This document shows positions 5,179 through 17,912 of a DNA stretch of 21,515 nt, piece by piece; within the stretch, counting starts at the first letter, position 1; each line of letters starts with the position of its first letter. Location: the NCBI GenBank assembly GCA_001460835.1, contig CYKH01000495.1, positions 14,061 through 35,575 of the forward strand, read 5' to 3'. A program made the translations under genes and the position numbers. The stretch is from Bodo saltans (taxonomy: Eukaryota; Euglenozoa; Kinetoplastea; Eubodonida; Bodonidae). Below the pieces are notes generated by a model, which made no database searches, was not told the origin of the DNA, and saw only the letters and a program-made list of their open reading frames with translations.

Positions 5179-7330
5179 ATGGTAAGTATTGGGACGCAGT
5201 ATATCATTCACGATGACGTAGTTGGAAAGGGCGCCTGGAGTGTGGTCAAGAGATGCTCAGTCATTCCTCCCTACGTGCCCAAGGCAGTTGAACAGTCCTC
5301 CGTTCTGCTTCGAGGAAGCCGCCAATACGTTGTCAAGATTATCGAGAAGGACTATCTCATCTCACTCACTAGTGGTGATGTTGAGCGCGCCTGACGTAGT
5401 TGGAAAGGGCGCCTGGAGTGTGGTCAAGAGATGCTCAGTCATTCCTCCCTACGTGCCCAAGGCAGTTGAACAGTCCTCCGTTCTGCTTCGAGGAAGCCGA
5501 TGTCAATACGTTGTCAAAATTATCGAGAAGGACTATCTCATCTCACTCACTAGTGGTGATGTTGAGCGCGCCATGGCAGAGGTAAAGCGAGAAATTGAAG
5601 TCTTGAAACATATTCCACCTCAGAAACACGTTGTGAACTTTATCGAGGAATTTGAAACAGACCATCAATTCTTGCTCATCTTCGAAGATGTTCAGTGCGG
5701 CGATCTTTGCGAATTAATCTTGAAGTCGCCTGGCGCGAAGTTGGAAGAGGAGCGCGCTAAGAAGTACACGTATCAGTTGATTCAGGCCGTGCTGCACTGC
5801 CACGTGAATGATGTCATTCATCGAGATATCAAGCCGGAGAACCTCTTGGTCAATGAGAGTGACGATCTCAAGTTGACTGATTTTGGCCTCGCTAAGTGGG
5901 CCAAAGGAGGAGGGGCTGCCGCCTCATCACCACCATCATCATCATCATCCGCACCGTCGGTGGGTGCTACTAGATGGCTCGTGGCATTCCCTGGGGCTGA
6001 GAAGCTAGAAGGCCGACGCATCGTGTGCTCTGACGTCATCGGAACTCCTCGGTACGGCGCCCCAGAAATGTTTTACGCCAAGTTTTCTCAGACACAGTAC
6101 GACGGGTACAAGGCGGATACATGGAGCGTTGGAATCGTCGCGTTTATTCTGCTATCAGGCGCATTTCCTTTTTTCTCAGGACCTGGCGCCACTGAGCAGG
6201 AGACATTTAAAAGCATTCTAGAGACTCCCTTGTCGGTGCCAAAAGAAGTGTCTTCTGAAGCTGCGGATTTCTTGAAGCGCATTTTGCACAAGGATCCCCA
6301 AAAGCGTTTGTCATTAGCTGATGCACTGGACCACCCTTGGATGGAGAAGGTCGCCATAAAGCCTATTTACACCTCTGAGACAATCGACAAGCACCGCTTG
6401 CAAGGCACAACCAACGTTGCAACAATTCTCTCTGACTGCGCTGCAGAAATTGATCAACTGCACCTCACCATCGCTAAGCTCCGCCGGGAAGTTCTGACTC
6501 ACAGGCTGAAAAGTGCAGATGCAGCAAATGCTGCTGCTGGAGCCAAGAAAATTGGTGTTGTGGGTGGGAAGGAGAGCCTTGCGTCATCGCTGCGACGTGC
6601 AGAAACACCAACAGGATCTCGAGCACGCACCGGTGCTTCACCAGCCCCGACATCTGCTCGACTTGGAGTCTCTCCCATGCGCCCCGGAAGTGCGACTGCG
6701 CGAAGTGCTGTTGGGACAGTTCGGACATCCAGCCCCTCTGTCATCCCTGACCGGACGGTTTCCCGAGGAGGTTCTACAACTCAACAGCAGCCTGCAGCAG
6801 TTGTTCGTCCGGCTTCGGCCACAGGTGGTGCTGGTGTTCGCACCGCTAGTCCCCTTTCGAGAAGCTCTCCCTCGACACAGCGCCGTGGTACCCCTCTCAG
6901 GCCAACTGGCGTCAATGGAGTCAGCCCTGCTACAGCAGCTCCTCCTGTTGCTGGTGGGAAGCCACGCACTGCTACACCAGGCGCAACATCACGAGTCAGC
7001 TCATCCAATGGAATTCGGCCTAGCTCCGCTGGCCCCGCTACGGCTGCTGGGACCGCCGGCGCATCGTCGTCCTCGAGCGCTTTCGGCGTGGGCGATGCTG
7101 TCATCTACAAGAGCTGCAGAGCTGTCGTGCAGTTTAGCGGTCCCACCACATTTGGTGCAGGCACTTGGGTGGGTTTAGAAATGCTTGAAGGCAATGAAGG
7201 TTCCAACGATGGATCCTCAGTATTCGACAAGCGAAGATACTTTACCTGCCCTAAAGGGAAAGGTGTTTTCGTACGAGCGTCGCAGATTAAGCGAGCTGAC
7301 GGTGAGAATGGTGCGGCTGGTGATTTGTAA
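5179..7330 (+). CDS. CAMK-like Ser/Thr kinase fused to a C-terminal CAP-Gly domain; frame broken by a tandem duplication
   Basis: The reading starts at ATG 5179 and stops at TGA 5392-5394 because a 178-nt segment is repeated. The frame is again open from the second copy to TAA 7330. The phase fits exactly if only one copy exists, giving about 657 aa. Domains in order: kinase (Gly loop GKGAWSVV; ATP Lys in YVVKIIEK at 5516; HRDIKPENLL at 5819-5848; DFG at 5879; GTPRYGAPE at 6041-6067; TWSVGIVAFILLSG), with a 40-50-residue Ser/Gly-rich insert in the activation loop. A short probable coiled coil (about 6440-6510), a Ser/Pro/Ala/Arg-rich linker and a CAP-Gly domain (7081-7300) follow. The CAP-Gly signature GKNDG is GSNDG here (7199-7213). 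CAP-Gly domains bind tubulin or EB-type tails, so a microtubule-linked kinase is inferred. Confidence 0.85.
5214..5572 (+). repeat. Back-to-back direct duplication (178 + 181 nt) inside the kinase gene
   Basis: Copy 1 is 5214-5391 and copy 2 is 5392-5572, with no spacer. They differ by a 3-nt indel with a neighbouring substitution (gccgccaat versus gccgatgtcaat) and one G/A change. The 178-nt offset is not a multiple of 3, so copy 1 runs into a TGA. Both copies encode the Gly loop and the ATP lysine. Small allelic-type differences and the lack of a spacer suggest two unmerged overlapping contig ends, but a real duplication is not excluded. Confidence 0.95.
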
Positions 7331-7672: not shown

Positions 7673-8419
7673 ATGGCACAAAGCTTCGAGTCTTGGTGGG
7701 AAAAATTGGGTCCCATTACAAAAATCATTCTAGTGTTGTCTGTGTGCATCACTATCGTAGGCTCCAGTGGGGTGGTCTCGCCCTACAAGCTGATTGTGGA
7801 TTTCAACTTGACAGTGTTCTCTTTTCAAATTTGGCGTATCGTCACTGCCGCATTTTACCTAGGAAATTTCAGCTTTCCGTGGTTGATGGCACTGGCAATG
7901 TTGGTGACGTATGTCAAACTCCATGAGGAGTCTGAGTTCCAAGGCCGCCGAGCGGATTTCGTGTGGATGCTTACGCTTCTTATCACGTTCCTGACTGTGG
8001 TTGCGTGGATCTTCTCCCTTCCACTTGTGTCGTTTGCACTTACGATGTCGTTGTGCTGGATCTTCTGCAAGCGCAACCCAACTGCAAAACTATCGATCTA
8101 CTTCTTTGAGTTCAGCGCAAACATTTTTCCTTGGGCACTCTTGGCGTTCCACGTTGTGCTCGGCCAAAGTGTGATGGATGATGTTGCTGGAATCGTAGCT
8201 GGCCATGGATTTCTGTTCCTTCACGATATGCTACCCAAGACACACGGCATGAAGCTTGTGGAAACCCCACAGTTCATCAAAACGTGGATCCCGCATCAGC
8301 GCCTGTTTGGTTCTGTGCACAGCGGTGTTCATGCGGTAGCCCCTGCTGGTCGACAACCATTGAACGAGCAGCCTGCACATCGCAACTGGGGTCAAGGACG
8401 CGTCCTCGGTACCCGCTGA
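7673..8419 (+). CDS. Derlin (ER-associated degradation, rhomboid pseudoprotease)
   Basis: The intact protein has 248 aa, the usual Derlin length. Family marks are the WR motif (FQIWRIVTAAFYLG, residues 51-64), the loop helix HEESEFQGRRADFVWML (84-100), RNPTAKLSIYFFEFSANIFPW (134-154) and GIVAGHGFLFLHDMLP (173-188). Rhomboid-like membrane helices cover about residues 15-35, 50-80, 96-135, 148-165 and 168-185. The C-terminal tail ends HRNWGQGRVLG, fitting the SHP-type motif that binds the p97/VCP ATPase in other Derlins. The expected role is retrotranslocation of misfolded proteins from the ER membrane to p97 and the proteasome. As in all Derlins, there is no catalytic Ser-His dyad of active rhomboids. 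The ATG at 7673 is the natural start just after the acceptor. Confidence 0.94.
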   Translation: MAQSFESWWEKLGPITKIILVLSVCITIVGSSGVVSPYKLIVDFNLTVFSFQIWRIVTAAFYLGNFSFPWLMALAMLVTYVKLHEESEFQGRRADFVWMLTLLITFLTVVAWIFSLPLVSFALTMSLCWIFCKRNPTAKLSIYFFEFSANIFPWALLAFHVVLGQSVMDDVAGIVAGHGFLFLHDMLPKTHGMKLVETPQFIKTWIPHQRLFGSVHSGVHAVAPAGRQPLNEQPAHRNWGQGRVLGTR

Positions 8420-8516
8420 CAAAGTATTTGCCAACACCCTTCAGATATATGTGCGCACATTATTGCATTTTTTATCGCAAGAAGAAAAAAATAAAATCGT
8501 CCCCGTACTCAATGCA

Positions 8517-8589
8517 ACTGTTTCCCATGCATTTTCTCGTTTCCCTCTCGTTTGCCCTTTTTGGCGAACAGCTCTCTTGGCCTCATCAG
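8517..8589 (+). promoter_or_regulatory. Candidate trans-splice acceptor of the Pls-like synthetase gene
   Basis: A pyrimidine-rich stretch covers about 8517-8563, with AG at 8570-8571 and, after more pyrimidines, 8588-8589. No ATG occurs between 8589 and the chosen start at 8709. Confidence 0.5.
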
Positions 8590-8708: not shown

Positions 8709-9600
8709 ATGTCATCCGCAGATGAGCTTTGGCAGCAAACCACTGCGTTTGCATTTCACCCCGACCGAGAGGTTCGCAAAACCGCTCGATCCGTTGCTCC
8801 TCGTCGTGCAATGCTCCCAACGATCAAATTGAATCGCCGAGCTCCAAACGACGTCATCATCGGTAACTCCATCGCCGTTCACAACCTCCTCAACGACGCT
8901 GATGATGAGGAAGCAGAGCAGCGCAAGATTGACATCAGTGGCATCCAGTTTGTTGTTCCAGCATGGCTTGAGGCAACCGAAGATCGCGTGTTCGAATTTT
9001 GTGCGACGGTCATCTTCGCCATGTACCACAAATCAGGCGGCGCTGACGCCGTCTTAATCCTAGACGGAGTGCCCCCTGTGGCAGTTCTCAACCCATGCTC
9101 CCTTGCGCCACTTCAAGATGAAAAGTTCGCTGACATTGTCTCTGACATTTCGCTTCGCCGAAACGCGTCCGCAGACAGCAACGGTCGTAAGACTGCAGCG
9201 AACGAGATCAAGAGTAGCGCAGCAGTCGGTAGCGCGGTAGTGGTGCTACAACGAACCCTTGATCGTGTCGGTATGGAAGCGTTTGCTCAAGCCTTTGATA
9301 TTGTGTACGCTATCGACTACGCTGGATCCAAAACACGTGCATGCTGCCTTGACATATACTTCAACGCAGAGAAGTACCGTGATGGTTCCGCCACGTACTG
9401 GCTGCAGATGATCCAGGCGATTCTCTGCACTGACGCCCTCAACACCAAGACTTTAAATGAGATTGATGTCCTCGACGACGATATGAAGCACCATCTGCTG
9501 TCAGAGCTGCAACCTGCTCAGTTTGATGAAGACCTTTACAACATTACCGCCACCCAACTGTTCCAAGCATCCCGTGAGGAACACACTGACAAAGACAGTA
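8709..9600 (+). other. N-terminal condensation-like region of the synthetase, catalytic HHxxxDG absent
   Basis: About 300 residues precede the adenylation domain. The second half resembles the end of an NRPS condensation domain: a strand-like CLDIYFNAEKYRD, then a helix TYWLQMIQAIL, then an acidic linker and DMKHHLLSEL just before the adenylation start. I cannot find the HHxxxDG active-site motif anywhere, so it would be inactive for peptide-bond formation. The match is weak and from memory of the fold; an unrelated lineage-specific domain is possible. Confidence 0.45.
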
Positions 9601-12600
9601 TTTGTATCCTCGAGCCGAAGAATAACAAGCAGTACACATTCGATGAAGTGGAAACGTTGTCAGACAAGATTGCTGTGAGCATCCCGTGAGGAACATACTG
9701 ACAAAGACAGTATTTGTATCCTCGAGCCCAAGAATAACAAGCAGTACACATTCGATGAAGTGGAAACGTTGTCAGACAAGATTGCTGTGTATCTTCAGCA
9801 AACCGTTTGTCCTGACCAGCTGGACCGATTTGGTATTGATGCTGCATGCGCGTTGCACATGCCGCGTTGCGCAGAGTGGTATTCACGCTGGATTCGATGC
9901 GTGGGACGCTCGACTACAACGGCCCTGTTGTCGCAATTGACAGCATCATGGAGGAGATCGCTGCCATCGACTTGGAGAAAAGATCCTACAAGCCCCTTGC
10001 CACACCAAACTCGCCCATGTACTACATTTACACGAGTGGTTCCACTGGAAAACCGAAGGGCGTCCTTGTCGAGCATCGCAACTTGGTGAATTTTGTGATC
10101 TGCGAGAGGAAGCTGTTTAAGCTAGAGAACCGCCACCGTGTGATTCAAGGGTTCAGCACGAGTTTTGATGCGTCCTTGGAGGAGATTTGGCTCGCGTTTG
10201 CCTCCGGCAGCACGCTCATTTGTGTGTCCAAGGCGGTGATGCAAGATGCTGAGCAGCTCCAAGAGCTCATCACCGAGACTCAGGCGACAGTACTGTCGAC
10301 TGTGCCTACACTTCTTGCCACGATGGAAGCCTCGAAGCTCCAACAGCTTGAGCTTGTGATTGTTGGTGGCGAGGCGTGCAACAAGGAAGTGCTTGACGCG
10401 TATGCCACCGGTGGCCGTCGTATGTTCGTCAATTCGTATGGACCTACAGAGGCGACAGTCGCGTGCTGCGCTGCGTTTTGCCGCGCTGGTGACCCAGTCA
10501 CTATTGGTCGAGCGCAGCCTGGCTACGTCGGATATATTGTGAACGAGAGCATGCAACTCACCCCACCCGGTGTCCCTGGAGAGCTCTGCATTGGCGGCCC
10601 TTCAGTGACACGCGGCTATGTTGGCCGACCAGAGTTGACCAAAGAAAAGTTCATCCACTGCCCGTTCCATCCGACGTACCAGCGGATGTACCGCACTGGT
10701 GATCTTTGCCGCTGGAACCTGGANNNNNNNNNNNNNNNNNNNNNNNNNNNNNNNNNNNNNNNNNNNNNNNNNNNNNNNNNNNNNNNNNNNNNNNNNNNNN
10801 NNNNNNNNNNNNNNNNNNNNNNNNNNNNNNNNNNNNNNNNNNNNNNNNNNNNNNNNNNNNNNNNNNNNNNNNNNNNNNNNNNNNNNNNNNNNNNNNNNNN
10901 NNNNNNNNNNNNNNNNNNNNNNNNNNNNNNNNNNNNNNNNNNNNNNNNNNNNNNNNNNNNNNNNNNNNNNNNNNNNNNNNNNNNNNNNNNNNNNNNNNNN
11001 NNNNNNNNNNNNNNNNNNNNNNNCCGTCGTCGTGCTTCGCAACGACGCTGGTGGCATGCCGTTTTTGTGTGCTTACCTAATTTGTGAGCCCCAGCTAGAG
11101 GCCAACTTTGCGGAGGCTGCGTTACGCAACCACCTCAAATCGACCCTTCCATCGTACATGATTCCTACTCGGTACGTTGCCATCAAGACCATTCCTCGAT
11201 CCCCAGCTGGAAAGCTCGACCGCAACGGCTTCCCTCCCCCTCCTCCTCCCAAGGAAGACGAGCGTGCAGGAGACGAGTCATCCGCTAAGCAGCCGCCATC
11301 GACGGAGACGGAGAAACTATTCCATGAGATTTGGTGCAAGCACTTGCCTGGGCAAACTATCGGCATCCAAGATAACTTCTTCGAAATCGGTGGTCATTCT
11401 CTCTTGGCCGGAAAAGTGTCCAGCGATATCCGTAAGCGTGGATTCGAAGGATTCAGCATCCGCTACCTTTACAGCCATCCCACCATTGAGACCCTGTCTC
11501 AGGCGATGGACTCTATGAAGGCTCTTCGCAAGAGCGAGCCCGCATGCACCACACTTCCATTCCGTCAGGCACCTTCGATCACACGTCGCATCGCCTTCTC
11601 CATCATTCACCTGCTCACCATGCACGCGGTGTTCAGTCTCCTCTCGATGTACATTGTGTTCTTCCTATGGGCTTACAGCCTGGCAAATGAGAAAATTCTC
11701 AATTTGTCGTTCATCCCTGAACTTCTTGTCGACGGTATGGCATTAACCATTGCGCTGATCGTTTGCACGTACGGGTACATTTTTGTGCTTGTGCCCATTA
11801 TCAAGTGGACCATCATTGGTCGCTTCCAGGAGGGCATCTACAGCATTTGGTCATGGTACTTCATTCGCTGGTGGGTGGTGCGCGCCATGGCGATGCCGGT
11901 GCCGTTGTACGGCTTCAGTGGAACTGGCTGGGCGAACCTGTTCTTGCGCCTCATGGGTTGCAAGCTTGGCCGCGGTGTCACGTTTTTCCCTGGGCAGCTG
12001 TTTGACTACGACCTCATTGAGATCGGAGAGGACACCTCCGTTGGGCACGAGTCAACACTGTCCGCCTCAGAAGTGGTGGACTCACTGCTGATTCTTCGCC
12101 GAATCAAGATTGGAGCAGCATCTTCTATTGGCGCCCGCTGCTGTGTGAAGGGTGGTGCTGTCATGGGATCGGAGTGCCGCCTTGAGCATCTTTCGCTGCT
12201 TGGCGAAAATGTGATTATGGGTGACGGCGAAGAGTGGGCAGGAAGCCCCGCTCAAAACGTTGGCCGCACCAAGCCCCTAGAAGCACTCGTCCCTGAGCAC
12301 ATGGACGGCCTATTCGAACAGGCACGCCAAGAAACTCGCCGACGTGAGGATGACTACAACAACTCCGCCAAGAAGTTCTCCATCAATGACGCTGATGCTC
12401 TTCCAAACGAACAAGTCTCTCTGTTGACTCGTGCGCACGTCTCCGTTCCTATCCCTGGCGCTCAAAAGCCCAAGGCCATTCGCATGTCTGCGTTCGCCGA
12501 GATCATGATGATGCTCTTCCAATTCTTGTTCTTTAATGTGATCACCATTGTAAGTGCAACGCCAATCAGTGGCGCGTTGATTGTCTTATGGACGCACGTG

Positions 12601-14106
12601 GTGACGCTTGAGGGATGGAAGGAGTTCCTCTTTTTCTATCTAAAGTGCATCGGTGGTGCGCCAGTTGCTGTTGCTGCGATCATGTTCTACACCCACCTTC
12701 TCCTCGTCATACTGCGCTGGATCGTGCTGCCATGGAAGGTGGTGCCTGGCAACTACCCAGTCACCAGCGCCATGTTCCACCGGAAAGTGCTCTTTGATTT
12801 GGTGATGCGTATTTCTCTCACCATCGCCCACCCCCTCTACGCCTCCATCTACGTTCAGTACCTTCTGAAGGCTCTGGGAGCTGATGTGGGACACCGCGTG
12901 GAGTGCTCGAATTTGTTTGGGTTCACTCCTGGGCTTGTGAAGTTTGGCAATGAAAGCTTTGTGGCTGACTTTGTCTGCGTCAACCCACCTGAGATGTTCC
13001 GCGGCGTGATGACTCTCGGATGTGTCGAGATTGGTGACCGTGCGTTTGTAGGCAATGGCGCTGTTCTCTCCGCTGGCCGCACACTCCGTCCCCGCTCACT
13101 GCTCGGCCTTTTGTCTCACACCAAAGTTGACCTTGAGGAGGGCTCCACGTACATCGGCTCACCTGCTTTCAGCATTCCTCGCCAAGCTCAGAACAAAAAT
13201 GTTTCTGCAAGTGACGGCACGTACCAGGCTGGGTGGGGGCTGATTATTGCTCGATCCATCTGGGAGTTCTTCCGTTCGGTGACTCCCATTGCGTGCTTTT
13301 ACATCTCTCTCCTCGGAGGTTTTGTTCTCGTGACTGCGATTGCTGGAGACATTTTCAGCACCATCGAATTCTTGAAGTTCGTCTCAGTCTTTGTGTGGAT
13401 CGCCTCCTTCAGCTGCTTTATCATGATTATCATCATCAAATGGGTTGTGGTAGGCCGCGAACATCCCTCGCAATACCCATTATGGTCCAGCGGCGTGTGG
13501 AGGGCAGAGTTCGTGGTGGATTGCACAACAGTGATTGGCATGACGACCTTCCTTGGGTTATTCCGTGGAACCCCTCTGATGCCTTGGTTCTTCCGTGCTC
13601 TCGGAGCTAAGATCGGCAGCTGGTGCTACATCGACACTGTATTCTTGACAGAGCCTGATATGGTCACCATCGGAGATCACTGCTGCATCGGTGAACGTGT
13701 GACCATCCAAACACACTTGTTTGAAGATCGCGTGATGAAGATTGAACCTCTTACCATTGGGGATCGCGTCAGTATTGGTGCGCTGTCGATTGTACTGTAC
13801 AACACCACCATTGAGCGTGGATGCACCATTGGCCCTCTCAGCTTGGTCATGAAGGGGGAGTCTTACCCAGCAGGAACTCATTGGGAGGGTGTCCCTGCTC
13901 AACGAAGAGCTGTTCCGGGTGTGATGGCGGTGGCCCCGATGTCCACGAAGGTTGCTCGAGCACCTCGGTCACAACAACCTCAGTCGGTCCGCTGCTCAGC
14001 GAAGCCTAGCAGCGTCAAGCCCCAAGCTAACGCTGATGTGTCGCCGATCAAGGAGTGGCTACTAGACGACGGTCTTGCGACTGAACCTGAAGATGTTTAT
14101 TACTGA
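8709..14106 (+). CDS. NRPS-like poly-amino-acid synthetase, epsilon-poly-L-lysine synthetase (Pls) type; sequence broken in three places
   Basis: The gene runs from ATG 8709 to TGA 14104-14106, about 1,750 codons. Order: an N-terminal condensation-like region (8709-9600), an adenylation domain (about 9620-11240), a carrier domain (11300-11520), then three units of paired membrane helices plus a left-handed beta-helix domain (11580-13920), and a polar tail. This matches Pls, which polymerises lysine from a carrier-bound aminoacyl thioester at the membrane without a normal condensation or thioesterase domain. The frame is interrupted by a 112-nt duplication (9566-9789), a shift with apparent loss of adenylation core A2 near 9885-9915, and a 300-N gap (10724-11023). 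The rest is intact, so assembly error is likelier than decay. No close counterpart in trypanosomatids comes to mind; horizontal acquisition is possible. The product is predicted, not proven. Confidence 0.85.
9566..9789 (+). repeat. Back-to-back direct duplication (112 + 112 nt) inside the synthetase gene
   Basis: Copy 1 is 9566-9677 and copy 2 is 9678-9789, with two substitutions (acacac/acatac and gagccg/gagccc) and no spacer. 112 is not a multiple of 3, so the frame from ATG 8709 ends at TGA 9687-9689 inside copy 2. With one copy, the frame continues through the start of the adenylation domain. Confidence 0.95.
9620..11240 (+). other. Adenylation domain of the synthetase with lysine-like specificity residues
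   Basis: Core motifs seen are A3 YTSGSTGKPKG (10029-10061), A4 FSTSFDASLEEIW (10152-10190), A5 NSYGPTEATVA (10431-10463), A6 GELCIGGPSVTRGYVGR, A7 YRTGDLCRW and A10 AGKLDRN with the catalytic Lys at 11212-11214. A2 is missing at the lesion near 9890, and A8 with the start of A9 falls in the N gap. Aligned by eye to GrsA, the ten pocket residues read DAETIGSVAK. The pocket Glu at GrsA position 239 fits a basic side chain. Confidence 0.85.
10724..11023. other. Assembly gap of exactly 300 N
   Basis: Unknown bases lie within the adenylation domain. Sequence on both sides belongs to the same domain: it enters after YRTGDLCRWNL and resumes at VVVLRND. From the usual spacing of these motifs only about 45-50 residues are missing, so the real gap is probably near 140-150 nt and the 300 is a placeholder. 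The frame on both sides requires a true length equal to 2 modulo 3. Confidence 0.97.
11300..11520 (+). other. Carrier (thiolation) domain of the synthetase
   Basis: The motif DNFFEIGGHSLLAG is the phosphopantetheine attachment site; the modified Ser codon is 11398-11400. The following SIRYLYSHPTIETLSQAM is the usual helix-3/helix-4 region of a PCP. A phosphopantetheinyl transferase encoded elsewhere would be needed. Confidence 0.92.
11580..13920 (+). other. Pls-type terminal module: three (2 TM + left-handed beta-helix) repeats
   Basis: Six long hydrophobic segments lie at about 11587-11682, 11725-11816, 12493-12591, 12634-12735, 13255-13356 and 13369-13455. After each pair comes a hexapeptide-repeat domain (about 11947-12270, 12865-13180, 13585-13910) with repeating V-x-I-G turns such as IEIGEDTSVG, VEIGDRAFVG and VTIGDHCCIG, and a GSPA or GVPA end. 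Before domains 1 and 3 there is the typical GRF..G.Y..WSWYFIRWWVVR or GREHPSQYPLWS...WR linker. This is the arrangement of the terminal region of Pls and related NRPS-like proteins, where the tandem domains form the amide bonds. Confidence 0.88.
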
Positions 14107-14633: not shown

Positions 14634-15033
14634 ATCACTGGAACTAACACACCCACAAGCCACACACAAAACACGGTGATCTGAGGTGGAAGGGAAACGT
14701 TGCGCTCGGTCACTGACGATGGTTTCACTCATTTGTCCCCCCGTTTTTTCCCCACAATCAACAAGAGAGTGAAATCACAATTGCAGTTCTTAGATCATGC
14801 CTCTTGACGAAGCGGAGACCCTCTCCCGCCACATTCAGCAAAAAAAAAAAATTCACAGGAACTAACAAGCCTCACACAAAAAAGGTGGAAGGGAAACGTT
14901 GCGCTCGGTCACTGACGATGGCTTCTCATTTGTCCCCCCGGTTTTTTACAATCAACAAAAGAGTGAAATCACAATTGCAGCTCTTAGATCATGCCTCTTG
15001 ACGAAGCGGAGACCCTCTCCCGCCACATTCAGC
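14634..15033 (+). repeat. Diverged direct duplication of the SNARE gene 5' end (5' UTR plus first 15 codons)
   Basis: Copy A (about 14634-14834) and copy B (about 14851-15033) share the 5' flank, pyrimidine tract, ATG and first 15 codons. They differ by several indels and substitutions in the non-coding part but are identical over those codons. Copy A then ends in a run of A, codes only MPLDEAETLSRHIQQ plus 7 residues and stops. Copy B continues into the full gene. Both copies carry an acceptor-like tract (14736-14753 and 14930-14947) and the same ttgcag. Confidence 0.9.
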
Positions 15034-15731
15034 AGTACAAGAAAGCAGTCGGTGACTTTCAAGCGGCTGTCCAACAGCTGGGGACTGACAAAGATGCAGC
15101 GGCACGTGAGAGGCTGCGTAAACTGCGAACTGCGATACAAACATGCTCTTCCAAGATCGAAGAAACTCGATCTGGCTCATCGGACGAAACTGTCGAGAGC
15201 TTGCTGCAGACATACCAACAGCTTAAGAGGGATTACGACACAGCAAATATGAACGCAAAGAAGAAGGAGCGTGCTGTAGCACCTGGAGGCGACGCCAATG
15301 ATGCAGGTGGGAATAGCAATCGACAATTTAACTCTGGTGGTGGTGGCAATGCAGGAGGGAACGGCTCCCGCGGAGATCAGCAACAAGTTCGCGTTCAAGA
15401 AATCAAGCAAATTGACACATCAGAACTTGCGACAAAAGAGGCGCTTGAGAATGACAAGTTGCGTGGCGCAATTGAAATTGAGAATGAAATGAGAGACTTG
15501 AAATCAACGTACCAGGAGTTCCATGATTTGGTGGACCACCAACAGCAGGGCATCGATCGTGCCTCCAACAATATCTCAGAAGCTCGTGTGCATGTTGAGA
15601 AAGGTGTGGTGGAGCTACAAGAGGCCAACCGGCACCAAAAGGCATCTCGTAAAAAGATGTGCATCATTATCGTAGTGCTTGTCGCCATCGCAGTAGTGGT
15701 AGGAATTGGCGCGTATCTCGGGACTCAGTGA
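14991..15731 (+). CDS. Qa-SNARE, syntaxin 7/13 or Pep12-like
   Basis: The 246-aa protein is a tail-anchored membrane-fusion factor. Residues 1-90 form helices in the place of the Habc bundle. A Gly/Asn-rich linker (about 98-128) and a SNARE motif (about 160-218) follow. Aligned to syntaxin 1, the zero-layer residue is Gln184 in LVDHQQQGIDR, which makes it a Q-SNARE, and IEIENEMRDLKSTYQEFHDLV is typical of the Qa class. A basic SRKKM stretch leads into one membrane helix (223-243) and a 3-residue tail. The juxtamembrane motif and short N-domain favour an endosomal or prevacuolar syntaxin, which is an inference. The ATG at 14991 is the second of two identical ATG contexts created by the upstream duplication. 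Confidence 0.9.
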   Translation: MPLDEAETLSRHIQQYKKAVGDFQAAVQQLGTDKDAAARERLRKLRTAIQTCSSKIEETRSGSSDETVESLLQTYQQLKRDYDTANMNAKKKERAVAPGGDANDAGGNSNRQFNSGGGGNAGGNGSRGDQQQVRVQEIKQIDTSELATKEALENDKLRGAIEIENEMRDLKSTYQEFHDLVDHQQQGIDRASNNISEARVHVEKGVVELQEANRHQKASRKKMCIIIVVLVAIAVVVGIGAYLGTQ

Positions 15732-16982: not shown

Positions 16983-17912
16983 ATGCGTGGCGGTCGCGGT
17001 GGTGGTCGTGGATTCGGTGGCGGTGGTGGCCGTGGCTTCGGTGGGGGTGGCCGTGGAGGTGCCCGAGGTGGCGGTCGCGGTGGCGGTCGTGGCGGTGCCC
17101 GCGGTGGTCGTGGAGGTCGCGGTGGTGCTGCTGCAGGTGGTGCCAAGACCACGAATGTCCAGCTGCACGCTCGTTTCCCCGGTGTCTACATCATTAAGGG
17201 CAAGGCCGACGCTATTGCCACCAAGAACTTCGTCCCCGGAGTTTCTGTCTACGGCGAGAAGCGCGTCAGCGGTACTGTTGTCGGTGAGACTGAGTCCAAG
17301 GAGTTCCGCACCTGGAACCCCTACCGCTCAAAGCTCGCCGCCGCCATCTACGGTGGTGTAGAGAAGATCTACATGCAGCCCGGTAGCGCCGTCCTGTACC
17401 TTGGCGCTGCCAGCGGTACCACCGTTAGCCACGTCTCTGACTTGGTTGGCCCCGAGGGTGTTGTATACGCGGTCGAGTTCTCTCACCGTAGCGGTCGCGA
17501 TCTTGAGGAGATGACCAAGCCGGTCGAGTTCTCTCACCGTAGCGGTCGCGATCTTGAGGAGATGACCAAGCGCCGCGCCAACATTGTCCCCATCATCGAG
17601 GATGCTCGCCACCCCTGGAAGTACCGCATGCTCATCCCCCGCCTGGTGGACTGCATCTTCATGGATGTTGCCCAGCCCGATCAGGCCCGTATTATGGCCC
17701 TCAACGCACTGCACTTCCTCAAGGAGGGCGGTGGCTTCGTGATCTCCGTGAAGGCAAACTGCATTGACTCAACTGCTGACGCCGCGACCGTCTTCGCTGC
17801 TGAGGTGGCCAAGATGAAGCAAATGGGCCTCAAGCCCAAGGAGCAGGTCACGCTGGAGCCATTCGAGAGAGACCACGCTGTAGTTGCGGGTATCTTCAAG
17901 GCTGAGAAGTAA
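16983..17912 (+). CDS. Fibrillarin (NOP1), rRNA 2'-O-methyltransferase, with a 17-aa internal duplication
   Basis: The 309-aa product is the catalytic subunit of box C/D snoRNPs in the nucleolus. Residues 1-54 are a Gly/Arg-rich GAR domain. The methyltransferase domain follows: [13 protein letters not shown]-type region, SAM motif [20 protein letters not shown] (137-156), [34 protein letters not shown] and SVKANCID. The catalytic tetrad of the family is present as Lys117, Asp228, Lys257 and His298. A 51-nt exact repeat (17470-17571) duplicates [16 protein letters not shown] plus one residue inside the SAM-binding fold, where known fibrillarins align without a gap. This would probably disturb folding, so it is suspect. 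Codons are strongly C/G-ending, as in PA2G4, consistent with high expression. Confidence 0.95.
17470..17571 (+). repeat. Exact 51-nt tandem duplication inside fibrillarin
   Basis: Copies at 17470-17520 and 17521-17571 are identical and directly adjacent. The length is a multiple of 3, so the frame survives with 17 extra residues. Removing one copy gives a protein that aligns to other fibrillarins without a gap here. Confidence 0.97.

What the first reader, a model, noticed from the sequence alone, without database searches (positions are those of the whole stretch)
8709..14106. Epsilon-polylysine-synthetase-like megasynthase in a kinetoplastid-type genome
Adenylation, carrier and three membrane/left-handed-beta-helix units are seen in the order known for Pls of Streptomyces, a family of single-module enzymes that make amino-acid homopolymers. 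It lies between Derlin and a SNARE in a trans-spliced gene array with its own acceptor tract, so it is not a bacterial contaminant contig. If expressed it would give a protist a membrane-bound poly-amino-acid (isopeptide) product, perhaps antibacterial or surface-coating. I know of no described example in kinetoplastids.
Basis: partly seen in the sequence, partly recalled or inferred. Interest (0 to 1): 0.87.

Follow-up and report, generated by a model that had tools for sequence, protein, structure and literature searches.

The report
Polylysine-synthetase-like gene in a kinetoplastid
A single-celled relative of trypanosomes carries a gene for a membrane enzyme of the bacterial and fungal polylysine-synthetase family, with a lysine-type active pocket, so it may make an antimicrobial-type lysine polymer; the enzyme family is known, and what is new is the organism group it sits in.

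Summary
The locus encodes a partial amino-acid adenylation domain, a carrier domain with its GGHS serine, and a terminal domain with three transmembrane pairs and hexapeptide repeats. The terminal part scores 472 bits on TIGR02353 (Pls/PosA family), above the curated cut-off of 423. The pocket code D-A-E-S-I-G-S-V-A has the alanine typical of lysine-activating members and matches Pls (7wew) at 7 of 9 positions. Of 83 alignable near-invariant bacterial positions, 73 are kept. The genome is a kinetoplastid's. Codon usage is host-like, the gene is single-copy, and the relatives fetched are 24-40% identical over the terminal domain. This argues against contamination or recent transfer.

Caveats: the assembled frame has three faults: a 112-base near-tandem duplication, a frame switch near 9870 with about 34 adenylation residues lost, and a 300-base N run. 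Duplications elsewhere in the window suggest assembly joins for the first; they do not explain the second, so decay is not excluded. The N-terminal ~280 residues match nothing searched. Expression and product are untested. The family is already reported in fungi and a few other eukaryotes.

The parts
8497..8562 (+). pyrimidine-rich tract upstream of the gene, followed by AG; candidate trans-splice acceptor
   Evidence: score 28.5; random positions 90th/95th percentile 25/30
8709..9545 (+). N-terminal extension of about 280 residues, of unknown nature
   Evidence: open frame; no Pfam/NCBIfam/PDB match; no profile match to condensation domains
9546..9686 (+). start of the adenylation domain in the first frame, ending inside the second repeat copy
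   Evidence: weak but collinear match, 5.2 bits, to positions 24-63 of a 76-row family profile
9566..9789 (+). 112-base near-tandem duplication (two copies); moves the frame by one
   Evidence: 98% identity, spacing 112
9870..10721 (+). adenylation domain, central part, with pocket residues D-A-E-S-I-G-S-V-A; a frame switch and a loss of about 34 residues lie at its left edge
   Evidence: PF00501 176 bits, TIGR01733 255.7 bits from profile position 73; code by alignment
10724..11023 (+). run of N; about 42 residues of the adenylation domain are expected here
11026..11244 (+). adenylation domain C-terminal part with the PAGKLDR lysine (codon 11212-11214)
11344..11505 (+). carrier (PCP) domain; GGHS serine codon at 11398-11400
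   Evidence: PF00550 27.3 bits, cut-off 20.8; serine in 75 of 76 bacterial rows and kept
11587..11817 (+). first transmembrane pair
   Evidence: hydropathy
11818..12273 (+). first soluble unit (C1)
   Evidence: TIGR02353 positions 18-217 cover 11653-12273
12487..12735 (+). second transmembrane pair
   Evidence: hydropathy
12736..13190 (+). second soluble unit (C2)
   Evidence: TIGR02353 positions 230-695 cover 12499-13899
13276..13458 (+). third transmembrane pair
   Evidence: hydropathy
13459..13912 (+). third soluble unit (C3), hexapeptide repeats, QTHLFEDR motif at 13708-13731
   Evidence: PF00132 56.4 bits; each motif position in 75 or 76 of 76 bacterial rows and kept
13913..14106 (+). C-terminal tail beyond the bacterial end, and stop codon
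   Evidence: alignment
7673..8419 (+). flanking Derlin gene
   Evidence: PF04511 132 bits
14991..15731 (+). flanking SNARE/syntaxin gene
   Evidence: PF05739 54 bits

Best explanation
The locus is a host gene of a kinetoplastid for a Pls/PosA-family (cationic homo-poly-amino-acid) synthetase. Shown by sequence: an adenylation domain with a lysine-type pocket, a carrier domain with its attachment serine, and the family-specific terminal domain with three membrane pairs and hexapeptide repeats. Inferred mechanism: the adenylation domain activates L-lysine with ATP. The host phosphopantetheinyl transferase arms the carrier serine, and lysine is loaded as a thioester. The membrane-embedded terminal domain then joins lysines through side-chain amino groups into a short isopeptide homopolymer, releasing it into or across a membrane. 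The breaks in the assembled frame are most likely assembly faults. The gene probably came from bacteria long ago, but its donor cannot be resolved. Its cell role is a guess: antibacterial defence, or a polycation for an internal compartment.
For: TIGR02353 472.1 bits over the cut-off 423.1. PF00501, PF00550 and PF00132 over their cut-offs. Pocket code DAESIGSVA against DAESIGTVV in Pls 7wew and DAESIGTVI in 25 of 79 bacterial loci. D and E are essential in PosA, and alanine at position 2 goes with lysine (PMC10522769 sections 9 and 14). In the adenylation tree the window lies outside the 28-row clade (99/97) that holds the methionine-type (ornithine-like) rows. 73 of 83 alignable positions that are at least 95% conserved in 76 bacterial rows are kept, including the carrier serine and QTHLFEDR. 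Three TM pairs. Codon usage of the three pieces correlates with the other window genes at 0.73-0.86; the best of 84 bacterial homologues reaches 0.57, median 0.33. Single copy in the genome. One phosphopantetheinyl-transferase match in the genome.
Against: The frame is broken as assembled in three places, and one of them (about 34 residues lost with a frame switch near 9870) is not explained by the repeat. Ten near-invariant positions are changed, several of them not conservatively. Two of nine pocket positions differ from Pls (T to S, V to A). The window is a long isolated branch (3.19 changes per column, terminal tree), so specificity and chemistry may have shifted. The N-terminal extension is unexplained. 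No expression or product data.
Confidence: 0.64

Rival explanations
1. It is a decaying or dead copy: the duplication, the lost stretch and the frame breaks are real mutations.
For: Stop at 9689; 112-base duplication with mismatches between its copies (98% identity); about 34 residues lost with a second frame switch near 9870, which unmerged contig ends alone do not explain.
Against: The 1021-codon frame after the N run is open and 73 of 83 near-invariant positions are kept. Near-duplications of the same kind occur at three other places in the same 21.5 kb: 5214-5572, 14684-15044, and an exact 51-base one at 17470-17571 in the coding core of fibrillarin (the glycine-rich repeat at 16987-17144 is left out of this count). 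This points to the assembly.
Confidence: 0.18
2. It is a family member that activates another basic amino acid (ornithine, beta-lysine, arginine-like) or makes a short oligomer rather than a polylysine.
For: Code differs from Pls at two positions; a family member with an altered code activated arginine (PMC10522769 section 11); long branch.
Against: Alanine at the size-determining position and S-I at positions 4-5 match lysine types; PosA has M and H-N there, and the epsilon-poly-beta-lysine type has a glycine.
Confidence: 0.25
3. It is bacterial DNA wrongly joined into a eukaryotic scaffold.
For: Suspected joins lie inside the gene (9566-9789, about 9870, the N run) and between the gene and the SNARE (14684-15044), so no piece is tied to a neighbour without one except the N-terminal piece to Derlin; the family is mainly bacterial.
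Against: Host-like codon usage in all three pieces. If the repeats are unmerged contig ends, both sides share the same sequence, which itself shows that they are neighbours (inference).
Confidence: 0.04

Closest known systems
[quoted passage not shown] Streptomyces origin recalled)
   Same: A-PCP-terminal order; pocket code equal at 7 of 9 scored positions; 41% identity over 238 residues of the adenylation domain
   Different: window has a ~280-residue N-terminal extension, an extra linker after the first soluble unit and a C-terminal tail; S and A in place of T and V in the pocket; terminal domain 28% identical to that of the Embleya plasmid homologue L016, whose adenylation domain is the nearest to 7wew in the set
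Epls of the fungus Epichloe festucae (PMC7179176, passages seen)
   Same: eukaryotic gene of the same architecture, linked by overexpression to epsilon-polylysine
   Different: Epls is 51% identical to Streptomyces albulus Pls according to that paper; its sequence was not compared here
PosA, delta-poly-L-ornithine synthetase of Acinetobacter (PMC10522769)
   Same: same family and domain order; the D and E pocket residues, essential in PosA, are kept
   Different: code DMEHNGTVSK, methionine in place of alanine; its sequence was not aligned here

Membership tests
Pls/PosA (CHPA) synthetases | terminal domain matching TIGR02353 above its curated cut-off | tested here: met
   472.1 vs 423.1 bits; 473.9 in the genome search
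Pls/PosA (CHPA) synthetases | adenylation domain with conserved D and E in the pocket | tested here: met
   PF00501 176 bits; D and E at code positions 1 and 3. TIGR01733 is below its whole-domain cut-off (255.7 vs 317.4); the domain is incomplete as assembled
Pls/PosA (CHPA) synthetases | carrier domain with phosphopantetheine serine | tested here: met
   PF00550 27.3 vs 20.8; GGHS kept
Pls/PosA (CHPA) synthetases | six TM helices in three pairs alternating with three soluble units | tested here: met
   hydropathy only
Pls/PosA (CHPA) synthetases | three left-handed beta-helices packed in one domain | tested here: inconclusive
   hexapeptide Pfam hits, two stretches pass; structure prediction switched off
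Pls/PosA (CHPA) synthetases | no classical condensation or thioesterase domain | tested here: met
   none listed for the three pieces in Pfam; PF00668 found once in the genome, elsewhere
Pls/PosA (CHPA) synthetases | continuous open reading frame | tested here: inconclusive
   broken at 9689, near 9870 and by N 10724-11023; assembly faults likely, not proven
epsilon-polylysine synthetase (lysine-specific member) | lysine-type pocket code | tested here: met
   A at position 2, S-I-G as in 7wew; 7 of 9 identical
epsilon-polylysine synthetase (lysine-specific member) | lysine activation and isopeptide polymer made | not testable with these tools
   needs biochemistry
classical C-A-T NRPS module (N-terminal extension as condensation remnant) | match to the condensation domain profile | tested here: not met
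   no Pfam hit; hhalign probability 0.7% against four condensation domains, where the genome's other NRPS-like protein scored 95.9%

The most novel reading that the evidence does not exclude
A kinetoplastid makes epsilon-poly-L-lysine, or a near relative, without ribosomes. It would use an anciently acquired, host-adapted synthetase with a new N-terminal module, for killing ingested or competing bacteria or as a polycation counter-ion in a compartment such as acidocalcisomes. The roles are guesses, resting on no call.
Probability: 0.38. Interest if true: 0.72.

Novelty: new member of a known kind. Interest (0 to 1): 0.52.

Why it matters
Among eukaryotes, enzymatic homopolymers of basic amino acids have, in what I read, been tied to a gene only in fungi. 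A candidate in a kinetoplastid gives a directly testable claim that this lineage makes a cationic isopeptide polymer. It also adds a distant sequence for tracing how the family entered eukaryotes.

Tried and rejected
N-terminal extension as a condensation-domain remnant: its end looked like one to me by eye, but Pfam, NCBIfam, PDB sequences and a profile comparison with four condensation domains gave no support. The shuffled control printed nothing usable and is not counted.

Donor lineage: the terminal tree (76 bacterial rows plus the window, quick method, with long-branch warnings) and the adenylation tree (67 of 81 rows; 12 near-duplicate and 2 partial rows left out) leave the window on a long, unplaced branch.

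Spliced leader: a pattern written from recall of trypanosomatid leaders found 0 places with up to 2 mismatches. This does not show that the leader is absent.

Viral contigs: 44 pattern matches, none a relative.

Published kinetoplastid or euglenozoan example: none seen in the listings of searches (20 of 254 shown; 0 papers; 15 of 2,599 shown; 15 of 349 shown; 2; 1; 6). These listings are capped and cover only open-licence PMC papers. Supplementary Table 2 of PMC10522769, which lists its homologues, was not read.

Full report
What was checked. The window lies in G000:C247 (29.3 Mb in 934 contigs). The genome is a kinetoplastid's: it holds a trypanothione reductase at 854 bits (curated cut-off 738, exceeded by 0 of 14 controls) and nine paraflagellar-rod matches (0 of 14 controls). 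The species was not identified. A spliced-leader pattern that I wrote from recall found nothing.

Anatomy. Three readable pieces were searched apart. Piece 1 (8709-9686) has no match in NCBIfam, Pfam or PDB sequences; its last 44 residues or so align weakly but in the right place to the start of the adenylation domain in a profile of 76 family rows (5.2 bits). Piece 2 (9846-10721) is an adenylation domain (PF00501 176 bits; TIGR01733 255.7 bits from profile position 73, below its whole-domain cut-off of 317.4, as expected for a partial domain). Piece 3 (11041-14103) is the end of the adenylation domain, a carrier domain (PF00550 27.3, cut-off 20.8) and the terminal domain: TIGR02353, Pls/PosA family, 472.1 bits against 423.1, with hexapeptide repeats (PF00132 56.4). 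Hydropathy gives three pairs of membrane segments between three soluble units. This is the architecture given for the family in PMC10522769 (passages, and sections 9, 10, 11 and 14 read).

State of the frame. The assembled frame is not continuous. A 112-base stretch occurs twice in tandem (9566-9677, 9678-9789; 98% identical), moves the frame by one and leaves a stop at 9687-9689. After the second copy the shifted frame still follows the adenylation profile to position 87 (9.7 bits), and the next piece takes it up at 122 in another frame, so about 34 residues are lost near 9870. 10724-11023 is N, where about 42 residues are expected from homologue L019. Near-duplications are also present at 5214-5572, at 14684-15044 and, exact and 51 bases long, at 17470-17571 inside the coding core of fibrillarin. 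Four such places in 21.5 kb, one in a protein as conserved as fibrillarin, make unmerged assembly ends the likelier cause of the repeat. They do not explain the loss near 9870, so real decay is not excluded. The place at 14684-15044 lies between the gene and the SNARE, so contiguity on that side is also through a suspected join.

Constraint. In an alignment with 76 bacterial relatives, 88 columns are at least 95% conserved. In five the window has no letters (they belong to the motif that falls in the N run). Of the other 83 the window keeps 73, including the carrier serine and the whole QTHLFEDR stretch of the third unit. The ten departures are S to A, L to F, L to I, Q to H, G to S, W to V, G to N, W to Y, P to A and N to G: some conservative, some not.

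Substrate. By alignment the pocket reads D-A-E-S-I-G-S-V-A, and the later lysine is present. Among 81 rows (the window, Pls 7wew and 79 bacterial loci, two of them partial), 25 read DAESIGTVI and 7, including 7wew, DAESIGTVV; 36 have methionine at position 2, as PosA does. PMC10522769 ties alanine at that position to lysine and finds D and E essential in PosA. In the adenylation tree the window lies outside the 28-row clade that holds the methionine-type rows, supported 99/97, but its exact place is unresolved.

Origin. The fetched bacterial relatives are 24-40% identical over the terminal domain (27-33% where more than 700 columns align; the 40% of L070 covers 423 columns) and 35-51% over the adenylation part, apart from a partial row. 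The window is a long isolated branch in the terminal tree. Codon usage of the three pieces correlates with the other window genes at 0.74, 0.73 and 0.86; the ten other window genes score 0.50-0.77 against each other, and among 84 bacterial homologues the best reaches 0.57. The gene is single-copy. Contamination is therefore unlikely. An old transfer from bacteria is the natural reading, but no donor is resolved and no other eukaryotic sequence could be compared.

Function. The genome has a phosphopantetheinyl-transferase match (PF01648, 47.9 bits), which the carrier domain needs. The best-supported reading is a lysine-activating, membrane-bound homopolymer synthetase. The polymerisation step, the membrane in which it sits, export and the biological role are inferred or unknown.

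What is known. Family members are reported in bacteria, archaea and fungi, and in some Metazoa, Alveolata and Amoebozoa (PMC10522769). A fungal member is linked to epsilon-polylysine (PMC7179176, passages). My paper searches (capped listings) showed no kinetoplastid case. The finding is therefore a new member of a known family in what appears to be a new lineage, with an unexplained N-terminal extension.

Noticed in passing
L117:512-6622 (G000:C661): A 2036-residue open frame with an amino-acid-type adenylation domain (TIGR01733 186.6 bits, below its cut-off of 317.4), a condensation domain (PF00668 56 bits) with an HHxxxDG motif, a hydrophobic stretch between them and a sub-threshold methyltransferase match: a second NRPS-like enzyme in this kinetoplastid.
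   Followed up: partly
window 5214-5572, 14684-15044, 17470-17571: Near-tandem duplications at the start of a kinase gene, before and over the start of the SNARE gene, and in fibrillarin; probably unmerged contig ends.
   Followed up: partly
L118:2-4189 and L119:3-3023 (G000:C701): Two nearby large proteins with AMP-binding domains and long N-terminal parts; for the second, the closest NCBIfam models are fatty-acid-CoA ligases.
   Followed up: partly
L091: A contig titled Klebsiella pneumoniae MAG carries a Pls/PosA-type gene closest to an unclassified proteobacterial MAG and Verrucomicrobia; the bin name may be wrong.
   Followed up: no
L014:6607-7164 and L017:6568-7224: Both annotated bacterial synthetase genes are directly followed by a 4'-phosphopantetheinyl transferase gene; the window gene is followed by a SNARE gene instead.
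   Followed up: no
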